Shown here in pieces: positions 4,692-48,531 of a stretch of 64,000 nucleotides of DNA (position 1 is the stretch's first letter; each line of letters opens with the position of its first letter). Under the pieces are notes generated by a model. That model was not told the origin of the DNA and did not search any database. It saw nothing but the letters and a program-made list of their open reading frames with translations. The translations under genes were made by a program, and so were the position numbers. The stretch lies in contig NW_026611593.1 in NCBI RefSeq assembly GCF_028502605.1, positions 682,001-746,000 on the forward strand, in the 5' to 3' direction. The DNA comes from Trichoderma breve (lineage: Eukaryota; Ascomycota; Sordariomycetes; Hypocreales; Hypocreaceae).

Positions 4692-7600
4692 TTATATCTC
4701 CCACTCTTTCCTCAGTGAAGCCAACCACTCCTTCACTGTCACAGTCTCACCTCCGACGCGGACACCATCCACCAATTCTCCGCCTATTTGAACCACGCCA
4801 TCTCGAACCGCCGCGTTGCCCCTCGGATTCCACTTGGGTATTGCCAGCCATTCATGGCCAGGGTTGCACACAATCTTCTTCAACTTGTTTGCCTTCAGTA
4901 GAGGCAAGCATTCATCGCAGAAGCCTACATCCCAGCAGTACTTGCATATGCTCAAGCCGTTGTTGAAGTCTATCGGTTTATCACCACATGTACCGTCGCA
5001 GGTATAGCCAAACTTCTTAGCAATGTCTTTTTCCTCCAACGGCGTGATCGTCACCTCTTCAGAATTGTCGCCTGTCGCATTTGTTTCCGGCGCTTCCACT
5101 GATTCCAAAACAGTGAGTCCCTTCTGAATCTCCTCCAGACGCGCATGTGACTCCTCTAACTCATCTCCTTCTTCGCTCGCTGCCGCCAATCGTGCCTTCA
5201 ATTCGGCTTTCACCGCATTCAATCTGTCAAACTGCGTGGCCCCAAGCGGGCATTTTGTCTTAATAAACAAAGCCATCTCGTCAATAAGCCACTGCTGAGG
5301 TCCTCCGTCAAGATTGAGCGCTCTTGCGACGATATCCGTTTCAATCGGTTCAAGAAGGGACCAGGCCGTCAATGCGTTCAAATAATCTCCACATGCTGAA
5401 AGACATTTAAATTGGATGTACGCTGCCCAGTAATCATTCTCATCCGTGTCATCAGACAGATTTTCGATAGAAATTCGCATGTACTGCTTCACTACTTCTC
5501 TAGCCGCAGTTCTGTCGCCGCGAATAGTGTGGAATGCAGAGGCGAAAATGTCTGCTGCAGTTATCCCTTCAATGCCAGAGAAACGGAAGCCTCGCCTTAG
5601 TTCTTCCAGCTTGGAGTAGAATTCGGAAGAATCTGGCGACTTTCTAGTTTGCTCAAAGTAGTAAAGACTCAAGTGATTGACAATAGTGTCGTAAAAGGAT
5701 TGATATCTATATTTCAGATTATCCTCGTCGTCGTCCTTCCGAATAAGCTGGTCCGTGATTGTATAGCTGTCCTTCCAGAAATCGATCGCTTGCGATGCTG
5801 ACTGAGAGTGTTGCAAATCTTCATTATAAAGAGAAGCTAGGCCGCGGTGGAACAGCAATATGAGGAGCTCGATTTTCAACTCCTGCTTTCGCGCCGCTTC
5901 AATTGCTTGATCCATTGCTTCTCGCAAGGTATCCATGCAACTTTGATGTGAAAGACATATGCTGATCAGACTACGCAGTGGGGAGGTGTAACTAAAGTCT
6001 AATGCTTGACTGAGTATTGTCGAGGTCAATTGGTAGACACCCGGCTCTTTGGAGCTTAGTTTGCTCATCTCAAGTATGAGGTCATGAGTTGCTTGCTCGG
6101 AGCTCGATGCAATAGAGGTGGTTAACATGCCATTGAGAGCGTCTTGGTTAGCCGGGTCTACTTCCAGTGCCTTTTGATAATGCATTATAGCGCGATCTGG
6201 CTGTTGCAAGTGGTTGTACCAAAATGCAAGTCGTAAGTAGATGCTTGTCAGCTCGCCTTCATCTGGTGTCTCGGCTGCGTTAACCATTTCGAGTGCCCTT
6301 TCCATCATCGAACATGCGGAAAGAAGCTCATCGTTGTCGTAGTATGCTTCAGCTAGACTCTTGAAGCAGCTGAGGCTTGGATTATCGCACTCGGTTGCTT
6401 TTGTGAAGTTTGAAATAGCCGAGTCACTGTCCTCAAAGTATTGGGCGGCTTCCCCTATTCGTTCATACCAGAGACAATCGAGTGTTTTCGGCGACAGTAT
6501 CTCCTTACACCATTGCTCGGCTCTCTCTAGCTTTTCAGGTATATGCGTCGGCATGATTGGTTCGGGCTCAGATGGCTTCTCTGGCGGATCCTACAGAGCG
6601 TTAGTACAGCAGTCATGCTTGCTCTTTCAATAAATCTTACCAGAAGCATAAACAGGCGCAAGAAATTGAAACACTCCCCAGCAGACCATTCATTGCCTAG
6701 AAGCCAGTGTTGCGCCACCGTCTTCATCATGGGTGTGAGAAGTTCTCGATTCGGCCTCGGGCTCGTATTGACAGTCCTGAGCCAATCTTTGTCAAGTCTG
6801 CCGAGGTGACCGATTGCGTCCGGGTCCTTCAGCCAATTCCGGAATATTTCAATTCTGTCATCTTGGCCCATCCAATTCATCTCTTGATGAACCTGAAATG
6901 ACCACCAGTGTTTCTCTATCACATCTCCAGAGACAAATAGAGCGAAAAGGCCGTCTCCAATATCCTTCTTGTCAGATGCAAGGATTTCATCATAGCCAAT
7001 TGCTTGATTTAGGTGTTCCAAGTGACGATGAAGTGTTCGAATTATATAGGGGCCTATAAGCTTCGTCCTCTCGTCCGGTGGAGATGTGAGAAAACGCAGT
7101 CCCTGTTTCACTATAGCGAGATGTGAGTCATATTCGTTGACCTGGATTTCCCGGGCAGCAGAACGCGTAGGGCCAGATATAGGTTCAAATTCGAACTTCT
7201 CGACCATGGATTTCTGGAAAAGGCTCCAGAGAAAGTTCTGCACAGTTGTAATGTCGCCGTTGGAGATGGTCAGGTTGAGGGAAATTTTAGGCGCATCCTC
7301 GCTGATCCGTGGGCGGTTCCTTTCTTTGGTAATGAGAGGCTCGATTGATGGCAATATAGCCACATTTCCGTAGTGAGAAAAAAAGAGTTTAGAATACATG
7401 CCCTTCAGCTTGTCCTCAAGTTTCTGTAGAGAGACAGTTCCGAAGCGGAGGAACTAAGAATAAAAAGTGATCAGTTTACCTCATACCTTGCCAATACGCA
7501 ACGACACAACCTCACTTACCCGTACAGCTTCCAGATCGGCAGCGTCAAAGTATACAAAGCCGTATACGATCCATATCAGAAGCTCATTTAGTTCTTCGAT

Positions 7601-9449
7601 GGACTGCGGCTTGAGAGACTGTTGAAGTTCGAGAATGACGTTTTCAGAGATTGTCCTCTTATCTTGGTTAGACTCGTCTAGAATGGTGTCCATCTCAGCT
7701 TCCGAGCCATCGGACATGATCAAGTCCTTGATCTTCTCCAGAGCAGTCTGCACCTTGAGGAAATTCCCCTTGGCCTCTTCAAGTAGCCGATCGTGCACTT
7801 TTGTTCGAAGACGAGTTGTTTCAGACTCTTCGCCTTGCAAAAGATTTGTCTTTTTCAGCTCTTCGTGAATGTACGACGTGATATCTGAACCATTGTATTT
7901 CTCAATCTCGATATTTGGGGCCGATTGGAGAGATTCTCTTTGGAAATTATCGCTTTTGCCACTCACAATCAGCCGTACCCGATTCCCATCGCTGCCAGTG
8001 GACATCTGGCTCTGTATTGTCTCGAAGATATCTAGAAAGTGATTTGCGGCCTCTGGATGCCCTTCAAACAGTCCATCCAGGCCGTCGACAATGATGAAAT
8101 GCATGGTTCCTGGTTTCGGCGTCCCAATCTTCAGCTCGCGCCAAAGATCTTTGCAGGTAGAATCTCTAAAATACGATTCACTGTGTTTCTCATCACAAAA
8201 TGCAGCCATGCTTTTGGCAGTGCCGGAGTCTTGCTCGGCAAGTTGAAATGCAATGTGCTTCACTGCAGTTGCGCCCGGCCGCTTGTCGTCGTCTGCTTTC
8301 TTAGCGAAGAAAGGGAAGAAATAATAAGCAACAAGGGCTCGGGCTGTCGATTGGCCCTGAGATTCGTGGGCAGCCTTCAGCTGGTGTACTATGGTCGACA
8401 TTGCACTTGACTTTCCCGAGTGCGCTTCGCCAGTTAGTAGCAGCAATGGACTTGCATCGTTGGTAGACTTATCAGACCACTTCTGGTAGTCTTCCATGTC
8501 TCGGAGCCAATCCCCACTGTCTGTTATGCATCTTTGCCATATCTTCTCGCAAACATCTTTGGACGCCTTGATGTTCTTCTCATCAATTGCTAATTTAGTT
8601 CGAATCTTTGTGAGGTTTTCTTGTCTCGTCTTCTCCAAGCTGCGATTTGTCTCCGCCTCTTTCAGGTCTAGGATGCCAATCGCAATGTCATCAATCCTCT
8701 TACCAGTCTCACAGGCCTTTCCCAAGATGGTAGCAAGGTCTGCTTTGGCACTCAGAGCCACCTCCAAAGTCAAGGTAGCTTGGACATTCTGCTGCCCCTT
8801 CACAAGCTTCTCAAATTGCTCAATCTCATCCTTCAAGCCAGAGTCATCGTTCAGTAAGGCTTGCTTTGTAGCTGCCTTGAACCGTTTCCACCTGCTGCCT
8901 TTCCGAAGTACTATTGCTAGTGCACAGATGTCGACAAAACTTATCATGACTTTGTGTATAGCAGTATTCAGCTCTGGGTCGATAGTGTTGAACAGTTCAA
9001 TTCTCTCGTAAATCTTGAATTGGCTGAGGGTGGGGCCAACGATTCCGAAGACGGCGTCAATTGTGCCATGAAACTCGTGAATCGACTGTGGAACATCGAG
9101 AAGTAGAGAAATGGCGTTGAAACAAACACCCGCAGGTTGGAATACCTTCAAATCATTAGAAATAGGTAGTTGCGTGTCAAGGAACCTTGTATTCATTCAC
9201 CAACTCCGCTCCTTGAGCTGCTACTCCACCCAAGAGCTTGATACAGGATAGAATGTTTAAGCCGATCCGTTTAGCTCGTTCATGGCCTTCATCTGACTCT
9301 GCCGGAGATGAAGGGTCGTATCGGCGTTCTATCATGTCCCGAATGTCGTCTATACTTTTGGGAGGCTTCAGGTCTAGAGACCTTTCTGTGCGGGCCTGGA
9401 ATCGCCTGCCGGCTTCATCCCACATGCCACGAATGCTGAGATCCGCCAT
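4692..9449 (-). CDS. NLR-type STAND protein: Goodbye - NACHT-like NTPase - TPR - ZZ-like finger (1528 aa); complement(join(4692..6590,6641..7453,7520..9145,9201..9449))
   Basis: Four exons join in phase 0 with GT-AG introns of 50-66 bp. Residues 1-83 (MADLSIRGMWDEAGRRF, later PPKSIDDIRDMIE) match the fungal STAND N-terminal Goodbye domain. The P-loop GEAHSGKSS (about 322-330) and a Walker B-like IIVDGLDG (about 434-440) mark a NACHT-type NTPase. TPR-like helices occupy about 909-1070. The C-terminus (about 1422-1483) carries CDGTC, CKYC, CDEC and CNPGHEW, a degenerate ZZ-type zinc finger. Goodbye-NACHT-repeat proteins are fungal NOD-like receptors linked to heterokaryon incompatibility and non-self recognition. 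I infer a cytosolic signalling ATPase that oligomerises on activation. The start at 9449 is the Met of the conserved MADLS; an in-frame upstream Met at 9527 adds a hydrophobic stretch that is probably untranslated leader. Confidence 0.85.
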
Positions 9450-25948: not shown

Positions 25949-27161
25949 ATGTGTGGAAGACTTTTGTTCCTGATTCTTTCTCTTGGGGTTGGGGATTCCC
26001 TTGCAAACAAATCCAAGAAGCCTAGACCATGGAGTACTTTTGAGCAAAATGTGATATTCCAGCCAGATAGCAGCCACGGAGTCTCCTACCCACGACTCAC
26101 AGAACTATCTGACGGTACAATTCTTGCAACCGCAGCATACTCTGGAGACAGTCCTCCACATTTCCCTATATTTGCCAGTGAAGATGGCGGTGCGACGTGG
26201 GAATGGCGAAGCAACTTGACAGACCAGGTCAATGGACTGGGCTTTGGGTCTCAGCCTGCCTTGGCTGAGCTCACCTTTAACCTTGGAGGCTTCAAAGCTG
26301 GTACTGTGCTCGCAAGCGGCAACAGTGCTGGAGCTAATGGTACAAACATTGACCTGTACGCAAGTACTGATAAAGGCGAGACATGGAAATTTATCAGCAA
26401 TGTGGCTAGGGGAAGTGCTCCCAGTACTCAAAACGGAAATCCCTGCATTTGGGAGCCGTTTATTCTGTGAGTCTTGAAACTCTTGAGTGTATTGTCTTCT
26501 GAATCTTGGAACTAATGTCAACTGCAGCCCTACCAACAACACAGTCGGTGTGTTTTATTCTGATCAGCGAGATCCCCTACACGGGCAAAAGCTGTCTCAC
26601 CAAGTTTCAACTGATCTGAAGAATTGGGGCGATGTTGTAAATGATGTCGCTTACCCGCTGTATACTGATCGCCCTGGAATGACTGTCATCGATTACATCC
26701 CGCCTCTTAAGAAATGGATCTTGGTCCATGAATTTCCAGGTGGAGACTCATGGTCTGGTGCCGGGTACCCCGTGTATTACAGGCTCTCAGAAAGTCCCTT
26801 TGACTTCCGATATGCCTATGGTTACCCTATCGTTGTCAACGGCGTACAACCTAGCAGCAGTCCATACGTCGTCTGGACACCAGAGGGTGGCATCAATGGC
26901 ACTATCGTAGTCTCAGACGCCGACCATCAGAGCGTCTTTACCAACCGAGCCAACGGTCAGCCTGATCAATGGGAGGAACATAATTCTCCTCAGCCAAAGG
27001 CATACAGCCGTGCCCTCCACATCTTCAGCAAAGACAAGAGTCGACTCATGATCCTCGGTGCAGGTAACTTCCCTGGTGTTGATCCTCCAGGAACAAACCG
27101 ACCACTCTATGCAAGCGTTGTGGAGATTCAGGACATTTTGCGGAACAAACCAGGAGAATGA
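25949..27161 (+). CDS. Secreted six-bladed propeller glycosidase, GH93/BNR-like (383 aa); join(25949..26466,26528..27161)
   Basis: Signal peptide MCGRLLFLILSLGVGDSLA, then a sialidase-superfamily beta-propeller with Asp-box-like turns: SEDGGATWEW at about 73-82 and STDKGETWKF further on. One 61 bp intron (GTGAGT...CTGCAG) restores the frame across WEPFIL-PTNNTVG. Length 383 and the YPRLTELSDGT start resemble GH93 exo-alpha-1,5-L-arabinanases, which release arabinobiose from arabinan. The family call is from memory of the fold and length; a generic BNR-repeat protein is the alternative. Secreted, with several NGT/NLT sequons. It may contribute to plant cell-wall breakdown. Confidence 0.8.
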
Positions 27162-27469: not shown

Positions 27470-30400
27470 TCAGGTTTCAACGGGTTTGTTGCTGCTGCTA
27501 CTGCTGTCAGCAGGAAGGGGTAACCAGCCAGGGCTCAGGAGTACCTCTTCATCGTCATCCTCGCCAAATAAGAACCCTGCAGATGGCTTTGATGGTAGCA
27601 TTGTCTCTTGCGAGGACGATGGAGACAAGGGTGGGCTGCGTGGGTGCCTCGTATCTTTGCGGTCCTTAAGGGTTGCTGAGGGAAGTTTGGCAATGATCTT
27701 GTCCTCCATCGACATTGATTTGGCAGTTTGTTTCTTGACCCTGAGCCGATTCAGAATAACGCCATCATCCGAATCGCTGTTGTCACCGTAACGATCTGGG
27801 TATACCTCCATCTCGTCCTTATCATCGGCCCTGACATCAACAGCAATGCACTGTTCAACCTGCTCGTTAAAGCGAATCTGCCTCCGCTTAGCACTAGTGG
27901 ATGTAATTCCAGAAGACTCTGTCGGAGACACCAGGCCGCTGCTATCAACACTCATCCTTTTTGAAGAAAAGGGGTATGCGAAGTCATCGATGGCTTCGCG
28001 CCTGTTGTTGCTGGGTCGCAGGATGCCTTGTGTTTCTTGAGCTTGGATGGTCGCCGCGGCCTGCTCTAAAAGTGAGGTAGTGATCAACGGCCTCTGAAGA
28101 GTGACCTGAGACATGCTCCTCTTCTTTAGGATTGGCTTCTTGTTGAGATTGACCGACAAGTCCGTCTTGGGCAATGAGACGCTTGATCGCTCTGCGCGGG
28201 TATCGTGAATGGGCTTGGTCTCTGATTGCAACGGACCGTACAACCAAGTAACATCGCTATCCTTGAACCTGTGATGTCTCAGTCATTTATCACTCTCAAT
28301 ACAAGGTAAAACAGATACACAACACACCAGTTAATGGTTTCGGCCGAAACGGTTCGTAGATTATTTTTCACCTTCAACCAGGCTCTCCAAGAAGCGTTTT
28401 CCAATCGGGCGCTATTGGGAAAGTCAGCGCGCCGAGTTGCAATGTATCTCCAGGAAGACCTGATATCTTCCTCCTTCCAGTCATGGGACAAGTAGTCAAC
28501 GTGGCGCGAAGGCCTGATCGAAACGGCGGTATCATCTTCGGCGTGCTCAGTGACTGAGGGGGTTCCGGGTCTGGAGGTGTTGTTGGAGCCTCCATCAGAG
28601 CTCTCGTGCTCAGGAGGCCATTCTGTGTGAGAATCATCCTCATCGGGGCTCCGGGGAGGCTCGAGGTTATAATCTGCGTGGATTTTGGGATGGGTAAATG
28701 GCTTCTCCTGAGCAAAAGCGGGAAACAAATTGTGGTCTTCTAGAGAAGTTATGAGAGTTTGAGCGCCGTCGTGCATGGGGGTAATTGAGAAATTAGTAGC
28801 TGGGGTAGAGACACATGAGGTAATGGAGAGATTGGTAGTCGGGGTAGAGATGCAAGAAGTGATGGATGAGCTAGGCATCACATAATGGTCTGCAATGCTG
28901 GGTGTCATCGTGGCTGTCGGTTCGCCGTCTATGTCAAACATACGCCCAAGTTTGGCACTTGCCATATCGACTGTCGTAGCAAGATCAACAAATTGACATC
29001 TCAGGGTATTTGCGATGTTGCGGAATGCTTCAGCTAATGGAATAACGTAGCCTCCGCCAAATGCGTCGGCAGCAACGACGTAGCCGTACACCTCAAGGGT
29101 TGTCTCGTTGACCACCCATGATCCTGAATCTCCATCAAGAATTTCTGCTCACATTTTAGGTGATCGACTCCAAAAAGTAGAATAAACGGAGAGGGTTACA
29201 TACGCTTATTGCCGTCAAGGTTTAAGATGAGTGTGTCGACAAACCCTCTTCCAGGGCCAAGAAGGAGTCTCGAAGGCAAAGCCGATAGAGATCCCCATTT
29301 CAGCCCTTCTGATCCGCTCACAAGGACGACTGGCTGTCTCTTGCCATAACCACTGGACGGCAAGACGGGCATCACGAGTTCATGATCCTGGAAGTTAAAG
29401 ACTCCACCCTCCTGAGTCTCATCGTGTGACATCTTCCTCGGTCGAATGAGGTTCGGCTTGTAGCTGATCATATCGATAAGAGCCCAGTCATAGTAAGCCT
29501 CGGGCTCATCATACTTCGTATCGGTCGCTGCCGATCGATATCGCGGTGAGTCCTTCGAAATGGAACCTATCTTGCTCAACTCGTCGGCCGCCCATGACGA
29601 ACTGACATCTGGCAGAGCCAACGGGAGTTCGTCCATCGTACACAGTGGTTCGGCTTCATCGTCCAGCTCCTCTTCAGCTGAATCATAAGACTCGTCCTCG
29701 CTATCAGAATCCGAAAGCTCGAAGACCCAGTCGTCGGAGCACCTGGACTGGTCGCTCTCCGTGCCGGTTGTCAGTTCATCCTCCAGGTCATCCAGAAGGA
29801 TATGGCCGACGGTCAGCCCATATAACTTGATCTCTCCATTCGACCAAGAAACCTTTATGACACCGCCGAAGGTGCATCTTTTGTCGACACCGGAAGCCTG
29901 TCGGATAACTATGGGCGCTCCGCAATATGTCTCGCTTGTATAGCCCTCGCTCTCGTCAACGATCGGAATGAGGACATCAATGTCTCCTTCTGCCTGTTTC
30001 GTCTCCGGCTCTCGACCAACGACAAAGACTTCGAACGATGGTTGACCGTCTTCGGGCAAGCGCAAAGCTCTGACGGATTTCTTGTCGAAGAACTTTCTGA
30101 CCTTCTTGGACTGCTGCTCCGGACACAACACGACAATGCACGGCTTCGCATCGTCTTCGGAGCGGCCCAAGACCATCAATCTTATGGAAATCGGACACTG
30201 TTTCTTGCGAATCGTGCTGCGAATATACTCCAGCAGCGGCTTCTCAAGCAGCGAATGCACGTGGCGGAAGCGGGAGATCGTGGCATTGTCGACACTCTTG
30301 TCGAACTCTGCGAAGCCGGCGATGGGTGTGGGGGCAGACGGAACGGATTGGCTCTTGCTGTTGACACTGGCGTTGGCGCTGAGGCACGCAATTCGTGTAG

Positions 30401-30512
30401 ACTCATCTACAGATGGCTTGTCGTTGGGCGACGGGAATTGGGTGCTGCTGTATCCTGAATCTTGTCGATCGTCGGTCATCGATGGTCGGACGGATGTGGG
30501 GGTGGTATTCAT
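27470..30512 (-). CDS. Trypsin-like protease domain fused to truncated Reg1-like PP1 regulator (974 aa); complement(join(27470..28268,28328..29144,29204..30512))
   Basis: Three exons join in phase with GT-AG introns of 59 bp each. The first half (about 1-490) ends in a chymotrypsin-type fold: His237 in TVGHILL, Asp342 in YYDWALID, Ser443 in DGDSGSW. The triad is therefore apparently intact. From about 651 the protein becomes Reg1-like: HVDYLSHDWKEEDI, ARLENASWRAWLKVKNNL and, across intron 2, NW-FKDSDVTWLYGPLQ (DUF1752/PF08550). A PP1-docking RVxF-like motif RQIRFNE lies at 838-844. The Reg1 C-terminal tail seems missing: the protein stops after EDDDEEVLLSPGW and a Ser run. Reg1 is the glucose-repression subunit of PP1/Glc7. 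No stop codon separates the halves. Whether one fused transcript or two overlapping genes exist (internal Mets at 497, 505 and 516) cannot be settled here. Confidence 0.8.
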
Positions 30513-30895
30513 TGTTACACCCGCGGTGGTATTACCGACTCAACATGGCAGGGAGAAGAGAGCTGTTGTAAAATAAAAATCCGCGTGTAACTTGAAGCAT
30601 TAAGAGAAGGTCTCATGGGCGAGAGGAGAAATAACAATGGAACGTTTTCCTTCGCGTCGTGCAGGCTTAGCAGCGGGCTCCGAAGCCTTTCGAAATGTTT
30701 GATTGGGCTCTAATAACTCCTAAGCCACAATCCTGTCAATTGAGCCCGTAGGGAAGCCTTACATTCACCTTATGACAACATTGGCCAGTTCGGCTCTCCC
30801 AGCCCCCAAATAATACATGTAAATACGTTGACCTGCCCATATCGAGGGCTTTTTCGTTTTGAGGATAAACTGCTTGTCACATCCAGTCTCCGAGT
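30513..30895. promoter_or_regulatory. Shared 383-bp divergent promoter region
   Basis: The protease-Reg1 chimera starts leftward at 30512 and the membrane-protein gene starts rightward at 30896, so both share this interval. No clear TATA is visible in the central part. Co-regulation is an inference from geometry alone. Confidence 0.45.
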
Positions 30896-32149
30896 ATGAT
30901 CGGCTCTCTGGCATGTCCTTACCCGCTCAAGAGCATCACTGACGCCGAGCTACAGAAGCTCGCCCAAGCACTCTGGAACTGGAACATTTGCGAGGCGTGT
31001 CAGAATGTCGAGACCTGTACAAACTCGGGATGCTCATGGAGGCGCTCAGCTCGGTTAGAGCGCTTCTTTGACTTTTACAAATATGTCACGTCGTCCTATG
31101 TCCCAGATTTGCTGCCTGCCAGCACCCCGGCGTTACGCAACCATGAAGACGTTTTCGATATCATCAGGTTACTCCAGGCTCATCCCGATACGAAGCGCTT
31201 AGAGTTGACGCATGAATACTTCTCTAAGCGGGATAAACCACCTCCGCCCAGTGATCAGCATTGGGCATTCAACCTTGCCGTACAAGTCATGTCCATGGTC
31301 AAATGTTCAGCCGAAAATCAACCCTCCAGTCTGCTAGAACTCGGCACCCAGGCAACCCAGTGGCATTTTGATGAGTCGCTGGCTGAATTCCTATCAAGAG
31401 CGTTTCCGCAAAAGGATACAGGCAATCTCCATATTCACGATGACTCGGGCGAGATTAGAGATATAAAATCGACCTTAACAGCCAGACGTCTGAAGAAGGT
31501 TGCAGGGCTGAGGTTTCAAGGGACTGATGACCTGCGAAATCATCTGAGGATGGACGTCAAAAGGGGAGTTGTGGAGATTTACCATTACACAAGCGTTTTA
31601 AGAGAGCATTTGGCGGCGCCGCAGAAGTTGCACGATTCTTTAGTCTTTGAGGACTCCATCTCGGTATATGATACGGGTTTTGACGAAGCCTGTAACCCTC
31701 AAAAGACAGGTACTAATTGCCTCAATCTCAGAGGAAATATTCCTAGACAGATCGCCCTCGAAGCTCTGGACTCAATACAAAAGATCCTCTTTCCCTTTGA
31801 CTCAGATTCAGAGCAGATTCTTTATGACCTGGTATCCAAAGAATCCTTCGACCCCGATTGTCTGCGATATGATTCGGCCGTGTATCGAAGGGAAGGTGAA
31901 GAAGCTGCATCTTACAACTACTTCGGCGGGCGACTCGTGGACCTATTCAAGGAGCTGGAGGATCCTAGCCCCCGCGGCATCCTGGAGAAATGGCTTCAGC
32001 GCAAAAGCGGCGCTAGGTATATGATGATGGCGACGCTCGTTGGCGTTATTATAGCGATTATTCTGGGTGTTCTCGGCTTGGCTGTTGGGGTATTCCAGGC
32101 TTGGGTGTCGTACGAAGCTTGGAAACATCCTGTGAGTTCTGGGAACTAA
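30896..32149 (+). CDS. Hypothetical protein with C-terminal membrane anchor (417 aa)
   Basis: Intronless gene. A Cys cluster near the N-terminus (C32, C35, C41, C46; ICEACQNVETC) may be a small metal-binding or disulfide knot. A largely helical soluble body follows, and one long hydrophobic helix near the C-terminus (about 376-404, ATLVGVIIAIILGVLGL) is followed by FQAWVSYEAWKHP. A terminal anchor with this AW...W.HP ending recurs in fungal proteins of unknown function. No signal peptide, so it is probably tail-anchored with the body in the cytosol. Its divergent neighbour is the protease-Reg1 chimera. Function is not recognised. Confidence 0.8.
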   Translation: MIGSLACPYPLKSITDAELQKLAQALWNWNICEACQNVETCTNSGCSWRRSARLERFFDFYKYVTSSYVPDLLPASTPALRNHEDVFDIIRLLQAHPDTKRLELTHEYFSKRDKPPPPSDQHWAFNLAVQVMSMVKCSAENQPSSLLELGTQATQWHFDESLAEFLSRAFPQKDTGNLHIHDDSGEIRDIKSTLTARRLKKVAGLRFQGTDDLRNHLRMDVKRGVVEIYHYTSVLREHLAAPQKLHDSLVFEDSISVYDTGFDEACNPQKTGTNCLNLRGNIPRQIALEALDSIQKILFPFDSDSEQILYDLVSKESFDPDCLRYDSAVYRREGEEAASYNYFGGRLVDLFKELEDPSPRGILEKWLQRKSGARYMMMATLVGVIIAIILGVLGLAVGVFQAWVSYEAWKHPVSSGN

Positions 32150-40609: not shown

Positions 40610-42108
40610 GGCTGTAGTTGTAGGATTGCGCGTTTCGTGCTAACTGATAAGGTAGAGTTTTGTGCTAGAATGACAATTTGGATATTCTAGACTTTAGTTG
40701 GGTTTTAAGAGATATTTATACTGCCACCTCTATAGCTAAGCGGTTGTCAGTTCCGTATTTAGATCACATTTTATTGGTGTGTTCATTAATCATGAACTGG
40801 GACCTGGAATCATTTTTGATTCCATGCCCGTTTTATCAAGCCATCAATGTCATTATTGAAAGAGGAGTTACTCGCATATGAGCGCGTCATGTTGCTGAAT
40901 GGTCATTTAATAATCAGGAGAGTATTCAGATTAATATACAATCCCCAATCTCATATCATTTGCAGCACATTTCCGCTAAGATCCCAGTCTCAGGTAACCT
41001 AACTTAGTCTTAGTACGCTATTTGCCAAGCGCATGATTTCAAAGCAACTCTTCTTGTCAAGCAATGCCCTTCTTATACTCTGTGATACGGTCTCGAATGC
41101 GTCGACGATTTACTAAGCATACGCTGTAAGCAATCGATCGGCTGGCACAAACCCCCGCGCTGGGTCCGGAGAATAAACCACCCGGGCAATGATTTGTAGG
41201 GCCATTAATCCGCAACTCCGCGTAATGCTCCTACTCCGCACCAGATGAAGAGCTAAATGGGTGTCCAGCCTCCAATTTTCTGACTCTTTTGGCCCAAATC
41301 TGGTCTGACACAGATCGCTCTAGAGCAACTTAATTGTCTACAGTAACGCTCATATCTCCTTAAATACCAGCTTAATCCTCTATGTGAGATCTCTTGATTT
41401 CTTCAATTTCTTCGGCATTCTCGTATTCTATCCCACTCAAACTTGCAGGCTGTAACTAAGCATTACTAAATGTAACAGTCACAAGCTAGGTGTAGTGACA
41501 AGACTGGCTAGGCACCTTGGTGAGACAAAATGACTTCTGCTCAAGGCAACCTCGAGAGCATGATACTATATGAGTCGAAGCAGCATCAATTGAATCGCCG
41601 TTTGCTTCCATTATGCATTGACGGACATGAATACCACGGCGACAATCATAACACGTTCACTCCACTTCCATCTAGTGATGAGCATAAGGAAAGTTATACG
41701 ATCGGCGGGGCCAGGCATATATTTGTCGTAGATTAGCTATTTTCTCGATGCACGTCTATAATTAAACACAGCCTTGAAGTCCTAGGCTAAGCATTAGGCA
41801 GATCATTGAGTCCAATCGCCAAAATTTTAGCGCTTACTTATATGCATCAGGCAACAAAACATCAGTTTATCTGCCTTGTCGACCTCGTGTTTAGCGGTCA
41901 ACTAAGCCACGGAGGTAAACGATATAATACTACCTGGGTAGAGACACAGCAACGGACATGCAACTTTCAAACTGGAGGATACAAACTCGACTCAAACTCA
42001 ACTACTTTTACAAACTAACTTTTCCCCCTCGTAAAACTGAGTCGATCGCATGGTTCGATTGCCACGGTAGCCCTCAGTTCTTCACCCCTACAACTCTACA
42101 CCAACATC
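40610..42108. other. Intergenic upstream of the NACHT-ankyrin gene
   Basis: The two flanking genes diverge from here. A 68-codon frame at 41530-41736 has a fair start context (ACAAAATG) but no signal peptide, motif or homologue I know, so it is not called. Otherwise AT-rich with no recognisable structure. Confidence 0.4.
40713..40720 (-). promoter_or_regulatory. TATA-like box of the ToxD-like gene
   Basis: TATAAATA on the minus strand, about 105 bp upstream of the ATG at 40609. Confidence 0.4.
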
Positions 42109-45100
42109 ATGGGATCAGGAAGCCAGGCCAGTGAAGAAGACATTGACGCTGTCTTGATTGGCCGAGATGATGTCAGTGATTACAATCCGGGGCAATTGCT
42201 GCCCGAGCTTCCAGAGGTCATCGCAAAGATTCGAGCCTGGCTGCAGCCAACAGCATACGACATTGCTGGGGGAGAATACCGCAGGCACTTGTCGTCTCAC
42301 GTTGCCGGCACAGGGCACTGGCTCACTTCAAGTAAACAATATCAAGAATGGATGACAAATGAAGAGCATGGAATGCTCTGGATCAAGGGCATTCCAGGAT
42401 CTGGAAAGTCGGTGATGGCGGCCAATCTAATTAACGAAATTGCCAAGTCGAATCCAGGTTGTCCAGTGTTATACTTCTTTTTCCGCCAAATCATCGACGC
42501 CAATCATGAGCCTCGGGCTTTACTACGAGATTGGATGGACCAAATCCTGAGTTACAGCCCACCTTTACAGAAGCAACTGAAAAAGTATGTGGAAGAGAAT
42601 CGATCCCTTGACAGCATATCTCCGGAAACTATGTGGAATCACTTGCGCCTAGCCTTTGTTGGTCTTCCTGGAAAAGTCTTCTGCGTCGCTGATGCACTTG
42701 ATGAGATGGATCGTGGCAACGAGGGGTTCCTCAAGACACTTGGAGACATTAGCCAGTGGCGACCAAAGACGGTCAAGTTCTTGATCACCAGCCGTCCAGT
42801 GTCAAGTGTAGAAGTGCCACTAAGAAAGACCCCTTGTCTGCATATTCGGTTACAGGAAGCCTTGGTTGATGTTGACATTTCAACCTATGTCCATTTCGCT
42901 CTATCAAGATCTAATATCCCAGAGAGTGATTGGAAAACGATCGCAGATGCAGTCCCAGGCCGTGCGAATGGTTTGTTTCTCTACGCCAAGCTAGCCATGG
43001 ATGCGTTTCTCGAGCCAAACGTCGATATCAATACAGTTCTCTTGAAACTTCCAACAGATTTGAACGCCTTATATACCGATCTATTGAGCGAGCATGCAAA
43101 AAGATCTGGTGTGCCGGGTAACATCCAGCACCTCATTTTGCAATCCGTCACTCATGCTACCCGCCCCTTGCGACTGCTCGAGCTGGCAGAAATGATCAGG
43201 ATCAGCATGTTTAACGACTCCAAATGGGATATAAAAGCTACCAAGGGACTCATCAGAGCTGCATGTGGCCCGTTGCTGGAAATACTACCTGATGAAACAG
43301 TTTCGGTTATACACCACTCTTTTACTGAATACCTTAAGGGCACTACACGACCGGGCGAGGGCCAGCACATTGGGTATCCTGTCCTGCAGATGGGCTCAAC
43401 ACACGCTCAACTTGCTCTGCAGTGTATTCTGTACTTGAAATCTGGATGCTTAAATTCCATCACCCTTAAGACGGACGAAGAAATAGCCGACATGCCACGC
43501 ACCCAGTGGGAACGTGGCGGTGGCTATTTCAAGATTAAGCGCACAGTAGAAGAGATGGAAGTCGAAACCAGACTTCAGTACCCATTCTTTGAATATGCGG
43601 CCAGCAATTGGTACCAGCATATTGCAAAATCTGAAGCTGCCGGCCAGGATCAGAAAGAGATCAACGCGAAACTTGACGAACTATTTGGACTCGATAACAA
43701 TATGAGGGCATGGCTCCAGATGAGGTGGCCAGAATACAGCCTGGGCGCTAGAAGTGTCACACAGCTTCATATCGCCGCCAAAAAAGGCCTGGTATCATAC
43801 GTGAAAGAATTACTTGGAAGCTTCGACATAAACGTGCCGGATTTCTACGATAGAACACCTCTGTAAGCCATGGCTCTCTCCCCTCTAGACTGACTACTAC
43901 TAGAATAGTGGTGAGCTTCTTAGCAGCACATTACTAACATCAACACAACGTCTAGTTGGTGGGCTGCTTCTGAGGGACATGCGGAAATTGTTTCGATATT
44001 GATAGAAGGCGGTGCAGATCCAGATCGACCTGACAGTTACTCTGGCCGCAGGCCTCTTCATGTAGCGGCCAGCCACGACCACCCTGAAGCCGTAACAACG
44101 CTACTGAAAGCCGGGGTCAGCCCTTCAACGAAAAAGACTCTTGAAAATCCTTGGTTTAGGAGTCGTCGTTCCCCATCAAGCATTGGCGACACGCCGGTCC
44201 AGTATGCTTGTAATGGGCATTTCAAGGCACTAGAAGCATTTCTACCCTTTATAAGAGACGATTTAGATTTGATGCACCGTGCCTTGGCGTGGGCGGCCGG
44301 ATTGAGATCATCAAAATGCGTTGATTTGCTGCTTCAGCAACAGGGCGTGGATATCAACAAAACCATTGACGGCCAGACGCTACTTTATAGAGCTTGTGAA
44401 GCAGTTGATGAAGGGATGGTAGCAATGTTATTGAAGGCTGGAGCAGATGTTAGCATTATATGCGATGCTGGTGATGATGCGACTTGGCGATGGAAATATT
44501 CGCAGGATGAGCCCGCCAAACTGACCTGCTTATTTGCTCTTTGTAATCGACACGGCAGTGAATATTACAACGACAAACTGCAAGTTATATTCAGGCTTTT
44601 GGTCGAGGCCGGAGTTGACATTCACTACCGGACGCCATTAGGTGAAACAGCATTACACAACGCCGCTCATTGTCCTGTCCTCATCAAGTTACTATTAGAA
44701 GCTGGGCTTGATGCGAATGCCACCGATATCGATGGCGCAACTCCACTTCACTTTATGCGCTCGGGAATGGTTCCATTGATACCGTCCATAGAACTCTTTG
44801 TTGAGCAAGGACATGTTGATATCAATGCTGCAAAGGAATGCGGGCGAACGATTCTTCACGATCTTATCCTCAATGGTGACGAGCCATCAACTATGAGATT
44901 CCTGGAATATGGACCAAACTGCAATGCAGTTGATAACATGGGCAACACTCCATTGCATACTCTCATGCAAGTACCTAAGCCAACGCCAGAAATGGTCAAA
45001 GCCCTACTCGCTGGAGGAGTCGATCCAAATGCACGAAATCACGACGGCATGACTGCATTACTGCTCTGGAATCGATCCAGCGACAGTCGGACGGATATTC

Positions 45101-48100
45101 TAGACATGCTTCTCGAGGCGGGTGCCGATATCAACACGGTTGACAAGGATGGAAACAACCTAATCTTTCGATCGCTCTCCGTTTTCTTGTTTATGAATGC
45201 GGAAGATCCACACAAAGATATTAAATATCTTATCGATCGAGGAGTTTCACCGTTTCAACGCAATTTCCGCGGCGAAACAGCTCTCCACTACGCCATGAGG
45301 TGCCCCCACGCCTATGAGTCGAGACTTATGGCCTCCAATCCTGTGACGAGGGTTGATTTCCTCATTAGTTTAGGCCTCGACGTCAAGGCTGTTGACTATA
45401 ACGGAAATAACCTCCTTCATACAGTTGCCGTGTTGGATGTAAACCACAGCTCTTATGAAGGCCCGCGGTTACTGGACCTCTGGGAGAAGCTTCTCGCTCT
45501 GGGCTTAGACTTGGAACAGAAAAACCATGCCGGCCGCACGCCACTACACTTCTTATGCGCATACAGTAATCGTTGGTTGCGCATGCCGTCGGGGGAGACC
45601 ATGCCCATTGATCTCGTCATTTCCCGAACGAAGAATGTCAATGTCCCCGATGATGATGGCATCGCCCCTCTACATCTAGCTGTATCTACTTGCGGGGAGG
45701 TGTATGCCAAAAAGCTGATTGAAGCTGGCGCGAATCCTCTGGTTTCTACTCATGAAGGGCTCACTCCTCTTCATCTTGCTGCGCGGGGCAGAGACAGCAA
45801 CAATGTCGGCCTACTATTAGATGCACTAAGGAAACGACAACAAGGCCTACCAGATATTGATATCACACAGTCAGGACAAGCTAATAGTTCAACTTTGAGC
45901 AAAATGAATGACCGCCGGGCAGTAATGGGCGTGAATGCGAAAGTAACAACTGATTCGGACGCTTATACACCTCTTTACTACGCTTGTAGGTCTGGGAGAC
46001 CTGAAACAGTGTCTCTGCTGTTGGAAGCCGGAGCTGATGCTAAACTCAAAGGCATCTTCGAAGGTTGTCTTGAATTTGAAGAGGAATGCGAACGATGGAA
46101 GCATCCTCGTCCGCAACAAGATGGTGGCGAATACCAATACAAGGCAGCTCTAAAACTGCGTGACCCATACCGTACCGATGGATCTTGCCAGTGCCACAGT
46201 ACAGTTAAAGGGATCGGTATAGGCCATATAGCGAGGCTCGAAGAGATTGTTGACATGCTTGTCGAGCATGGAGCCGATATTTCTTTGCTTGTAAACCGTC
46301 CTGGGAGACACAAAGAAGGCATCATCAACACAGCTGTCGAGAAGCAAAGGAATTATACGGCTGCCTGTTTGATGCACGCTCTCGACACGAGCACTACCGA
46401 AGGGCTAGATGAGCTCACAAAGTTCGCCCAAGTTGCGCGTCGCCATGAGCAAGAAGCTGCATTTAAGGCCTTGACATCTTCAGCCCTTATTCGTCCCGGA
46501 GACAAGGATCAATCCGTGCCATTGAATTTTGTCACGCGGTTTTTGATTCGGAGAGAGTATCATCTGTTAGAAGAACTTTCTCGGCTGGGAGCGACATTTC
46601 TTCCTAAATTCACTCCAGGTGTTGACTACGTGCCAAACGAGAACGCCACCCTGGAACATCTTATAAAGCTTGGCTTCACGTCGCTTGTTGACAAGATAGC
46701 GACCATTGAGACGGAGGCACAGTTAGAAAAGGGAGAATGGCATGCGTTTGGTGACAAAACAAGGCCGGGTTTGTTCTTCTCAAAGAGGGATGGTACTTCA
46801 GCTTCTTTTTCGCCATTCCTTCTTACCGCTGTTCAGAGGGAGTTGCCGAACATGGATATGGTGCGATTGCTTGTTGAGAAATTTGCGGTCAACATCAATG
46901 AGACTGATACAGACATGGAATCCGCTCTCTTTTGGGTCGCACGAGGTAACTGCTGGTGGCAAGTCCACCAAGCATTGCCTTATCTGCTTGATGCTGGCGC
47001 AGATATTCATATGCGAAATGCAAAAGGGAAGACGCCACTCCATATGGCTCTCCAAGGAGACGGCGAATATCTAGGACCATTTAACTGGGACGCAGCCAAG
47101 ATACTGATCGAAAGAGGAGCGGATGTCAATGCGGTCGATAGTCAGGGCCAGAGCTGTCTCGCGTGCGCACAGCATAACGTTGACATGGTCAATCTTCTTG
47201 TCAAGCATGGAGCAATTGTCACACTGGACTCGATTTTTGGCGCCATTGAGTCCGGCAATGCAGAAGTTCTGCAAGCGCTCTTATCTAGCGGTATAAGCCT
47301 AAATGCTCTTGGAGACGCGCCGCCCAGGGAGGAAGACGAGAGGAGGAGGAGGAAGGGCCTTAAAGTGCCGGAGACACATAAAGAGTTTCCACTGCATTAT
47401 GCCGCCAGATATTTGAGCTTGAGTTGGACTAACTCGAACAGTTTTTGTCGGGAACTCCCCGCTAGAATGAAGATCATTGAGATACTCATTCAGCATGGAG
47501 CTGATCCGTTTGCAAAATTCCTCAAAAAGGACAAAAGGCCCGAAGACAAGTCCAGTCTCTCAGAGACACAAATCGCCACTATCGATGTGCCTAAAGGCTG
47601 GAGTGAATGTACCCTATTACATGAGGTACTTACTTCAGATATAATAGCAGATCCGTTTCTTCAAATTCCAAATCTCGACGTCAACTATCGAGATGCCAAA
47701 GGCCGCACTCTTCTCCATGCGATCTGCCATAATAAGGGTGGCTATCATGATGGTGGTGGCCCTGATCATATCATCGGATCAGACACGAATAAGGACGTGA
47801 TTACGCCAGAGGAGCGAGTTAGCTCATTTGAGCGACTTTTGTCTCTCGGTGCAGAATTGGAGGCGACAGATAACTTTGGCCGAAACGTCATTCATTATAT
47901 GTTTGCTGGTGGTGAAGAGCACACTTATTATTTTGGCTTGTTCCGGAAATCCTTGGCCTATATTCTTGAAGAGGCCCCCAATTTGATGAACCAGGCGGAT
48001 GGAAATGGCGATACTCCATTTCACTATGCCGTAAGACGGGACACTGCCGACGAATTAGACATGCTGTTGGCGGCGGGAGCAGATCATACAGTTGTCAACA

Positions 48101-48531
48101 ATAAGGGAGAAACTCTACTACATATATTGATAAAGAGTATTTCTCATCTGGCTTTACGCAACTTCTTTCACACCTTGGTTGATCGAGGTATTGATATAAA
48201 TGCTCGCAACAACCGTGGGGAGACGGCATTGTTTTCATTCTACAGTTTGCCAAAGACGGAGCGTTGGCTTGGTTTAGACGATAGCGACAAACCTAGACCT
48301 GAACTTGTCAAGCCAATGCTGGAGAATCTAGGTGGCGACTTCTTTGCTAGGGATAATCGAGGCCGGGGTCTCTTACATGCCGCTGCGGCCGGGGATGTCG
48401 AACGATTTCAGGAGCTTATGGATATAGGGCTCGATCCCATGATGGAGGATAGCGCCCAGCAGACGGCGATTGACGCGGCTGCTGCGTGTGGAAACAGAGA
48501 TGTTTTGGAGCTATTTGAGAAGAAGGAATAA
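42109..48531 (+). CDS. NLR-type NACHT-ankyrin protein (2109 aa); join(42109..43862,43956..48531)
   Basis: One 93 bp intron (GTAAGC...TCTAG with ACTAAC branch point) joins two long exons in phase. A short N-terminal segment ends in EYRRHLSSHVAGTGHWL. The NACHT NTPase follows, with P-loop GIPGSGKS (94-101), Walker B-like VFCVADALDEMD (about 190-201) and FLITSRPVSSVE. A helical region (about 300-570) leads to some 1500 residues with many ankyrin repeats, recognisable by TPLH, ALH, LLEAGAD and VDIN motifs (for example GETALHNAAH and GRTPLHFLCA). The repeats continue nearly to the end. NACHT-ANK proteins are fungal NOD-like receptors; the repeats bind ligand or partners and the NTPase drives oligomerisation. 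No N-terminal effector domain (HET, HeLo, Goodbye) is obvious. The gene probably signals in the cytosol, trigger unknown. Confidence 0.92.

What the first reader, a model, noticed from the sequence alone, without database searches (positions are those of the whole stretch)
27470..30512. In-frame chimera of an apparently active trypsin-like protease and a truncated Reg1-like PP1 regulator
The reading frame runs without a stop from a chymotrypsin-type domain with an intact-looking triad (His237, Asp342, Ser443 of GDSGS) into the Reg1 signature (ENASWRAW..., DVTWLYGPLQ across an intron) and an RVxF-like PP1-docking motif RQIRF. The Reg1 C-terminus appears lost. I know of no described protein with this layout. 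It could be a retargeted phosphatase regulator released by proteolysis, or a decoy or guard that couples protease activation to glucose-repression signalling. Alternatively a second Reg1 copy landed next to a protease gene.
Basis: partly seen in the sequence, partly recalled or inferred. Interest (0 to 1): 0.85.

Follow-up and report, generated by a model that had tools for sequence, protein, structure and literature searches.

The report
Protease carrying a swappable regulator bait
In the fungus Trichoderma breve one gene joins a predicted protein-cutting enzyme to an extra copy of the sugar-signalling regulator Reg1, beside a gene for a predicted membrane protein; relatives in other fungi carry different attached parts, so the attached part likely serves as an exchangeable bait in a defence-like sensor.

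Summary
The chimera is real. The window gene (minus strand, 30512-27470, three exons) equals a 974-aa public Trichoderma breve protein. Exon 2 alone runs from GDSGSW into the Reg1 core without a stop. Ten records (six Trichoderma, four Clonostachys/Bionectria) carry both halves; a normal full-length Reg1 lies elsewhere in the genome.

Two things go beyond the finding. (1) The protease half belongs to an ascomycete family, predicted fold closest to rice NAL1, whose members carry different attached parts: Reg1, Clr5, Zn2Cys6, Myb, TPR, muHD, PigL_N and, in this same genome, peptide N-glycanase and La. (2) It lies head-to-head with a predicted membrane-anchored protein gene (30896-32149, +); for 18 of 48 relatives that partner is adjacent or on the same contig, and the two proteins' distances co-vary (r 0.97, 16 pairs).

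The attached Reg1 is of Nectriaceae type, not Trichoderma type (AU p 1.8e-77), so horizontal transfer is likely. It evolves far faster than the normal Reg1, yet 13 of 13 copies keep the PP1-docking motif.

Best reading (inferred): a two-gene sensor/executor module with Reg1 as exchangeable bait. No transcript or assay was available.

The parts
29204..30512 (-). exon 1: N-terminal alpha/beta domain (from about residue 75) and first part of the predicted protease (H237 at 29802-29804, D342 at 29487-29489)
   Evidence: coordinates computed from the exon ends
29145..29203 (-). intron 1 (GT-AG, 59 bases), acceptor as in the public protein
28328..29144 (-). exon 2: nucleophile S443 (29125-29127), end of protease (about 28930), disordered linker with the fusion junction, Reg1 core (SSWRYI from 28458, ENASWR from 28401)
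   Evidence: one open frame, 0 stops in 271 codons
28269..28327 (-). intron 2, at the same position as an intron of the normal Reg1 gene (…NW|.KD.DVTWLYG)
27470..28268 (-). exon 3: DVTWLYGPL, KKRSMS, PP1-docking motif RQIRF (27869-27883), early stop relative to normal Reg1
30513..30895 (.). 383-base region between the two divergent coding sequences
30896..32149 (+). partner gene: 417-aa reading, mostly helical predicted fold, C-terminal hydrophobic helix (375-410); an intron-like stretch near 31665-31735 is absent from many relatives

Best explanation
The window gene reads as one 974-residue protein in which a predicted NAL1-like serine protease runs in frame into a second, Nectriaceae-type Reg1 copy, and it is likely the sensor half of a two-gene module in which the Reg1 part would act as an exchangeable bait and the neighbouring membrane protein would be the executor. 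Shown by sequence: the fusion; the paired partner; the exchange of the attached part between relatives; the foreign origin and fast change of the attached Reg1; the kept PP1-docking motif. Inferred: something that attacks or binds the Reg1/PP1 complex (an invader's effector, or a non-self partner after hyphal fusion) would touch the attached Reg1, alter the protease, and the protease would then cut or release the membrane-anchored partner, leading to a local response such as cell death. Each inferred step is untested.
For: Fusion in one exon and in ten records of two genera. Family of 48 hits with attached parts Reg1, Clr5, Zn2Cys6, TPR, Myb, muHD, PigL_N, inserted homeodomain (public gene models), and, read from this genome's DNA, peptide N-glycanase and La plus zinc fingers. 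Normal copies of both Reg1 and peptide N-glycanase (70% identity) lie elsewhere. Clr5 forms sit inside the Trichoderma Reg1-bearing group; holding the 11 Reg1 rows together without them is rejected, p 0.024. Partner: 18 of 48 relatives have it adjacent (11 by consecutive locus tags, the window itself) or on a contig of the same length (6); Mantel r 0.966, 0 of 9999 permutations, 16 pairs; further divergent pairs on C1, C4 and C6. Triad kept in 43/44/43 of 45. PP1 motif in 13 of 13. Analogy: fungal gasdermin/protease two-gene clusters with multidomain protease sensors (PMC10197012, section 15 read). Two STAND/NLR-type genes lie in the same window.
Against: No expression, cleavage or cell-death data. 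For 30 of 48 relatives no partner was identified next door; in at least six species (e.g. P0028, P0041, P0050, P0067, P0128, P0139) the listed partner relatives are on other contigs. About half of the relatives have only a low-complexity tail and no recognised attached domain, so bait is not universal. The partner has no match to any solved fold, so 'executor' rests on its membrane helix and on analogy. The whole module evolves fast, not the Reg1 part alone, so fast change does not by itself mean an arms race; Reg1 N- and C-terminal parts are lost, as relaxed constraint would also give. The C4 and C6 proteases are weak matches.
Confidence: 0.45

Rival explanations
1. The attached part is a targeting arm, not a bait: Reg1 docks PP1/Glc7 (and other regulators in relatives), bringing the protease to that complex so that it trims a native regulator, as plant NAL1 removes TOPLESS-type corepressors.
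For: PP1-docking motif kept in 13 of 13; core residues invariant in 42 native Reg1s are kept at 0.86-0.89 in the fused clade over residues 560-800; many attached parts are DNA-binding or transcription-type domains; nearest solved fold is NAL1, reported to degrade TOPLESS-like corepressors (PMC12915138, passages).
Against: Does not explain why unrelated attached parts are exchanged at one locus type, why the attached Reg1 is foreign and changes much faster than the normal one (72.9% against 97.8% identity for T. breve/T. compactum), or why a membrane partner comes along.
Confidence: 0.25
2. A selfish or competition pair: the protease is toxic and the membrane partner is its antidote or carrier, spreading horizontally between mycoparasitic fungi.
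For: Nectriaceae-type Reg1 in both Trichoderma and Clonostachys; protease identity between T. breve and C. solani (82%) is as high as between T. breve and T. velutinum (85%); tight divergent pairing.
Against: No sign of a mobile element was looked for beyond the gene pair; attached host-like regulators are not needed by a toxin; partner and protease are kept together over very long divergence, which also suits a host function.
Confidence: 0.13
3. The attached Reg1 is a passenger: a chance fusion that drifts and has no function of its own.
For: Fast change, loss of both ends of Reg1, several truncated records; fused-clade conservation follows native conservation only loosely (Spearman 0.31).
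Against: Open frame in ten records, motifs SWRYI, E[NT]ASWR.W, D[VI]TWLY.PL and the PP1 motif kept in 13 of 13; the same kind of fusion happened repeatedly with other conserved proteins.
Confidence: 0.12
4. Annotation or assembly artefact joining two neighbouring genes.
For: P0022 (C. rosea) and a few other records are annotated as separate or cut genes.
Against: One stop-free exon spans catalytic serine and Reg1 core; independent genomes agree; intron 2 falls where normal Reg1 has its intron.
Confidence: 0.03

Closest known systems
Rice/maize NAL1 (NARROW LEAF 1) trypsin-like proteases
   Different: No sequence-level match to any solved chain; plant NAL1 has no attached Reg1-type domain or paired membrane gene in the passages seen; substrate here unknown.
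Reg1/Hex2, PP1 regulatory subunit of glucose repression
   Same: Core signature, shared intron, RxIxF PP1-docking motif; tree places it inside Nectriaceae Reg1.
   Different: Fused to a protease, lacks normal N-terminus and (in T. breve) C-terminus; a normal Reg1 coexists.
Fungal gasdermin / HET-Q2-like protease two-gene clusters (PMC10197012)
   Same: Neighbouring pair of a multidomain protease and a membrane-acting protein; attached domains vary.
   Different: Protease is chymotrypsin-type by predicted fold, not S8 or CHAT; the partner shows no gasdermin match; attached parts are copies of conserved regulators, not only repeats.
Plant NLRs with integrated domains (recalled)
   Same: Conserved host proteins built into a fast-evolving protein and exchanged between relatives.
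   Different: The carrier is a protease without a nucleotide-binding domain.

Membership tests
NAL1-type trypsin-like protease | two-domain fold with trypsin-like barrel | tested here: met
   AlphaFold model and fold comparison
NAL1-type trypsin-like protease | catalytic His/Asp/Ser | tested here: met
   43, 44, 43 of 45 relatives; geometry not measured
NAL1-type trypsin-like protease | recognisable sequence homology to solved NAL1 | tested here: inconclusive
   no hit by profile or single sequence at E<=1 (NAL1 not among hits)
NAL1-type trypsin-like protease | proteolytic activity on a corepressor | not testable with these tools
   needs an assay
Reg1/Hex2 PP1 regulator | Reg1 core signature (Pfam GATA_AreA stretch, ENASWR, DVTWLYGPL) | tested here: met
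Reg1/Hex2 PP1 regulator | RHIHF-like PP1-docking motif | tested here: met
   R/K-x-I-x-F in 13 of 13; yeast motif from PMC12520357 passages
Reg1/Hex2 PP1 regulator | full-length Reg1 with its own N- and C-terminus | tested here: not met
   N-terminal ~70 residues and, in T. breve, the C-terminal tail absent
Gasdermin / HET-Q2-like cluster | S8 or CHAT protease | tested here: not met
   no such Pfam match; predicted fold is chymotrypsin-type
Gasdermin / HET-Q2-like cluster | gasdermin partner | tested here: inconclusive
   no Pfam family above cut-off and no fold match for the partner
NLR with integrated domain | NACHT or NB-ARC domain in the carrier | tested here: not met
   none in P0001 or in the other relatives scanned

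The most novel reading that the evidence does not exclude
Filamentous ascomycetes have a protease-based counterpart of integrated-decoy immune receptors: NAL1-fold proteases that capture copies of conserved cell proteins (Reg1, peptide N-glycanase, La, transcription-factor domains) as exchangeable baits, each wired to a dedicated membrane-anchored executor encoded head-to-head, and passed horizontally between fungi as a two-gene unit.
Probability: 0.35. Interest if true: 0.92.

Novelty: new variant of a known kind. Interest (0 to 1): 0.78.

Why it matters
If right, it gives fungi a sensor class that is neither NLR, HET-domain nor gasdermin/S8 protease, and its attached parts name the conserved pathways (PP1/glucose repression, peptide N-glycanase, RNA-binding La) that enemies or non-self partners may attack. 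It also gives an uncharacterised NAL1-fold protease family and its partner a testable joint function, and a clear case of a domain-swapped gene pair moved between Trichoderma and Clonostachys.

Full report
Observation. The gene lies on the minus strand, 30512-27470. Its reading with introns 29203-29145 and 28327-28269 (candidates) equals the public T. breve protein T069G_10412, 974 aa. Exon 2 (271 codons, 0 stops) holds GDSGSW at its start and ENASWR near its end, so protease nucleophile and Reg1 core share one exon. Intron 2 falls where the normal Reg1 gene of the same genome has its intron, so the attached Reg1 came from a genomic copy, not from a processed transcript. The normal Reg1 (574 aa by my splice) is on contig C1.

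How widespread the fusion is. One search scored 7981 candidates, found 502 at E<=0.001 and listed 120. Ten listed records carry both halves over most of their length: T. breve, T. sp. SZMC 28011, T. aggressivum, T. harzianum, T. velutinum, T. afarasin, Clonostachys solani, C. byssicola, C. rhizophaga and Bionectria ochroleuca (P0001-P0010). The T. harzianum record P0004 lacks the GDSG stretch. P0011, P0012 and P0013 carry partial versions, and P0022 (C. rosea) is the Reg1 part annotated alone. That these Trichoderma species belong to one clade (Harzianum) is recalled. Normal Reg1s of T. virens, T. asperellum and others are, but no protease relative from those species is among the 48 hits (capped at 7992 candidates).

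Origin of the Reg1 part. In a tree of 55 Reg1 sequences (12 fused, P0022, and 42 natives: 41 chosen and the window genome's own) the fused set plus P0022 is one group at 100/100, beside Mariannaea, Neonectria and Ilyonectria (99/99); eight native Trichoderma Reg1s form another group. Holding fused and native Trichoderma copies together is rejected (lnL 113 worse, p-AU 1.8e-77); the same for Clonostachys (98.6 worse, p 4.3e-8), there with a single native row, P0060, which has a long branch. The protease halves of T. breve and C. solani are 82% identical, about as close as T. breve and T. velutinum (85%), whereas normal Reg1 is 87-98% identical within Trichoderma and 68% to the one Clonostachys native. 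Horizontal transfer is the likely reason; direction is open.

Rate and constraint. For T. breve against T. compactum the attached Reg1 is 72.9% identical and the normal one 97.8%; path lengths are 0.44 and 0.022. Against SZMC 28011 the protease is 95.4%, attached Reg1 81.7%, partner 91.8%; against C. byssicola 80.8, 67.1 and 82.5%. So the whole module changes fast and the Reg1 part fastest. Residues invariant in the natives are kept at 0.86-0.89 on average over residues 560-800 of the fused set and at 0.71-0.76 after that; 70 of 203 native-invariant columns are changed in most fused copies, largely at both ends. SWRYI, E[NT]ASWR.W, D[VI]TWLY.PL and R/K-x-I-x-F are in 13 of 13. In yeast the RHIHF motif of Reg1 is needed for Glc7 binding (PMC12520357, passages); T. 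breve has RQIRF, keeping the I and F.

Exchange of the attached part. Pfam finds, after the protease: GATA_AreA (the Reg1 stretch), Clr5 (P0014, P0015), Zn_clus (P0042), TPR (P0067), Myb (P0124), muHD (P0127), PigL_N (P0130); in P0138 a homeodomain sits before the protease. These rest on public gene models and some may be prediction errors. P0028 and P0050 carry a Cys/His-rich tail without a Pfam match, and about half of the family has only a low-complexity tail. Two cases were read from DNA in the window's own genome. On C1 a relative (37% identity) runs in one open frame from GDSGSW into peptide N-glycanase (ORF 5090-5848 of L018, then 5785-6663); the enzyme part matches yeast peptide N-glycanase at 1.3e-55, and its normal copy is on C2 (70%). 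My splice uses one GC-AG intron, at the position of the normal gene's intron. On C4 a 1647-aa frame with a weak protease match (E 7e-5, GDCGGW) carries La (6.6e-19), DUF7896 and Zn_clus. In the protease tree (45 rows: 44 records and the C1 relative) the two Clr5 forms fall inside the Trichoderma group of Reg1 forms (100/99), with Clonostachys Reg1 forms outside. Holding the 11 Reg1 rows together without them is rejected at p 0.024 (group named after the tree was seen). Exchange of the part on a kept protease is the simplest reading.

The partner. The divergent ORF 30896-32149 has relatives (155 at E<=0.001, 120 listed). A hydrophobic C-terminal helix is the hydrophobicity maximum in 95 of 99 relatives of at least 340 aa. 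Its model is good (pLDDT 86) but matches no solved fold and no Pfam family above cut-off. Of the 48 protease hits, the window's own is next to it by direct reading, 11 have consecutive locus tags with a listed partner (for example Triagg1_9/_10, CFAM422_001630/001629 with Clr5, HRG_000266/265 with muHD, G6O67_004519/004520), and 6 share a contig of the same length: 18 of 48. For the other 30 no neighbour was identified; lists are capped and clustered at 90%, but in at least six species partner relatives were listed on other contigs only. Distances of 16 pairs correlate at 0.966 (0 of 9999 permutations; relatedness inflates this). In this genome divergent pairs also stand on C1, C6 and C4, the last two by weak matches.

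Mechanism. Fungal gasdermins are mostly encoded beside multidomain protease sensors (PMC10197012, section 15 read; PMC12881547, passages). The present pair has that layout with different parts. Attached copies of conserved proteins, exchanged and fast-changing, on a kept protease with a membrane partner, fit a bait-sensor best. In support, two STAND/NLR-type genes lie in the window (42019-48528 with NACHT and ankyrin repeats; 4692-9196 with a Goodbye domain and TPRs), and on C3 a weak protease relative (E 0.002) overlaps the end of a frame with a HeLo domain (1.4e-6); HeLo as a cell-death domain is from PMC12881547 passages. None of this shows function. Targeting of the protease to PP1 complexes is the main rival.

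Verdict. Observation confirmed and more general than thought; interpretation partly supported; mechanism inferred.

Noticed in passing
window 42019-48528 (+) and 4692-9196 (-): Two STAND/NLR-type genes (NACHT/NPHP3_N with ankyrin repeats; Goodbye/NPHP3_N with TPRs) in the same 64 kb.
   Followed up: partly
L018 3877-6663 (G000 C1:7493376-7496162): A second protease chimera, carrying peptide N-glycanase, with its own divergent partner gene; both normal and attached glycanase have GRVGEW where the catalytic Cys is expected (position recalled). A reference title in PMC2872674 says the Neurospora orthologue is essential without enzymatic activity.
   Followed up: partly
L028 1400-6343 (G000 C4:4161899-4166842): 1647-aa frame: weak NAL1-like protease with GDCGGW, La domain, DUF7896 and Zn2Cys6, divergent from a partner-like gene.
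   Followed up: partly
L029 3790-7448 (G000 C3, - strand): HeLo-domain frame overlapping a frame with a GDSGAW protease-like stretch; possibly one gene by splicing, not verified.
   Followed up: partly
protease family, N- and C-terminal tails: Motif DSGY[SGDANV][STM] near the N-terminus in 27 of 45 relatives and after the protease in 20 of 45, in none of the Reg1 or Clr5 forms after the protease. It looks like a DSGxxS phosphodegron (recalled).
   Followed up: no
window about 31665-31735 (+): In-frame stretch of the partner ORF, with intron-like end (TACTAAT...CTCAG), absent from many relatives of about 395 aa; splice status unclear.
   Followed up: no
P0138 (Xylographa pallens): Homeodomain inserted between the N-terminal domain and the protease, with Cys in place of the catalytic Ser.
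   Followed up: no
window 25949-27161 (+): Neighbouring two-frame gene that looks like a secreted sialidase/BNR protein by eye; no call tested it.
   Followed up: no
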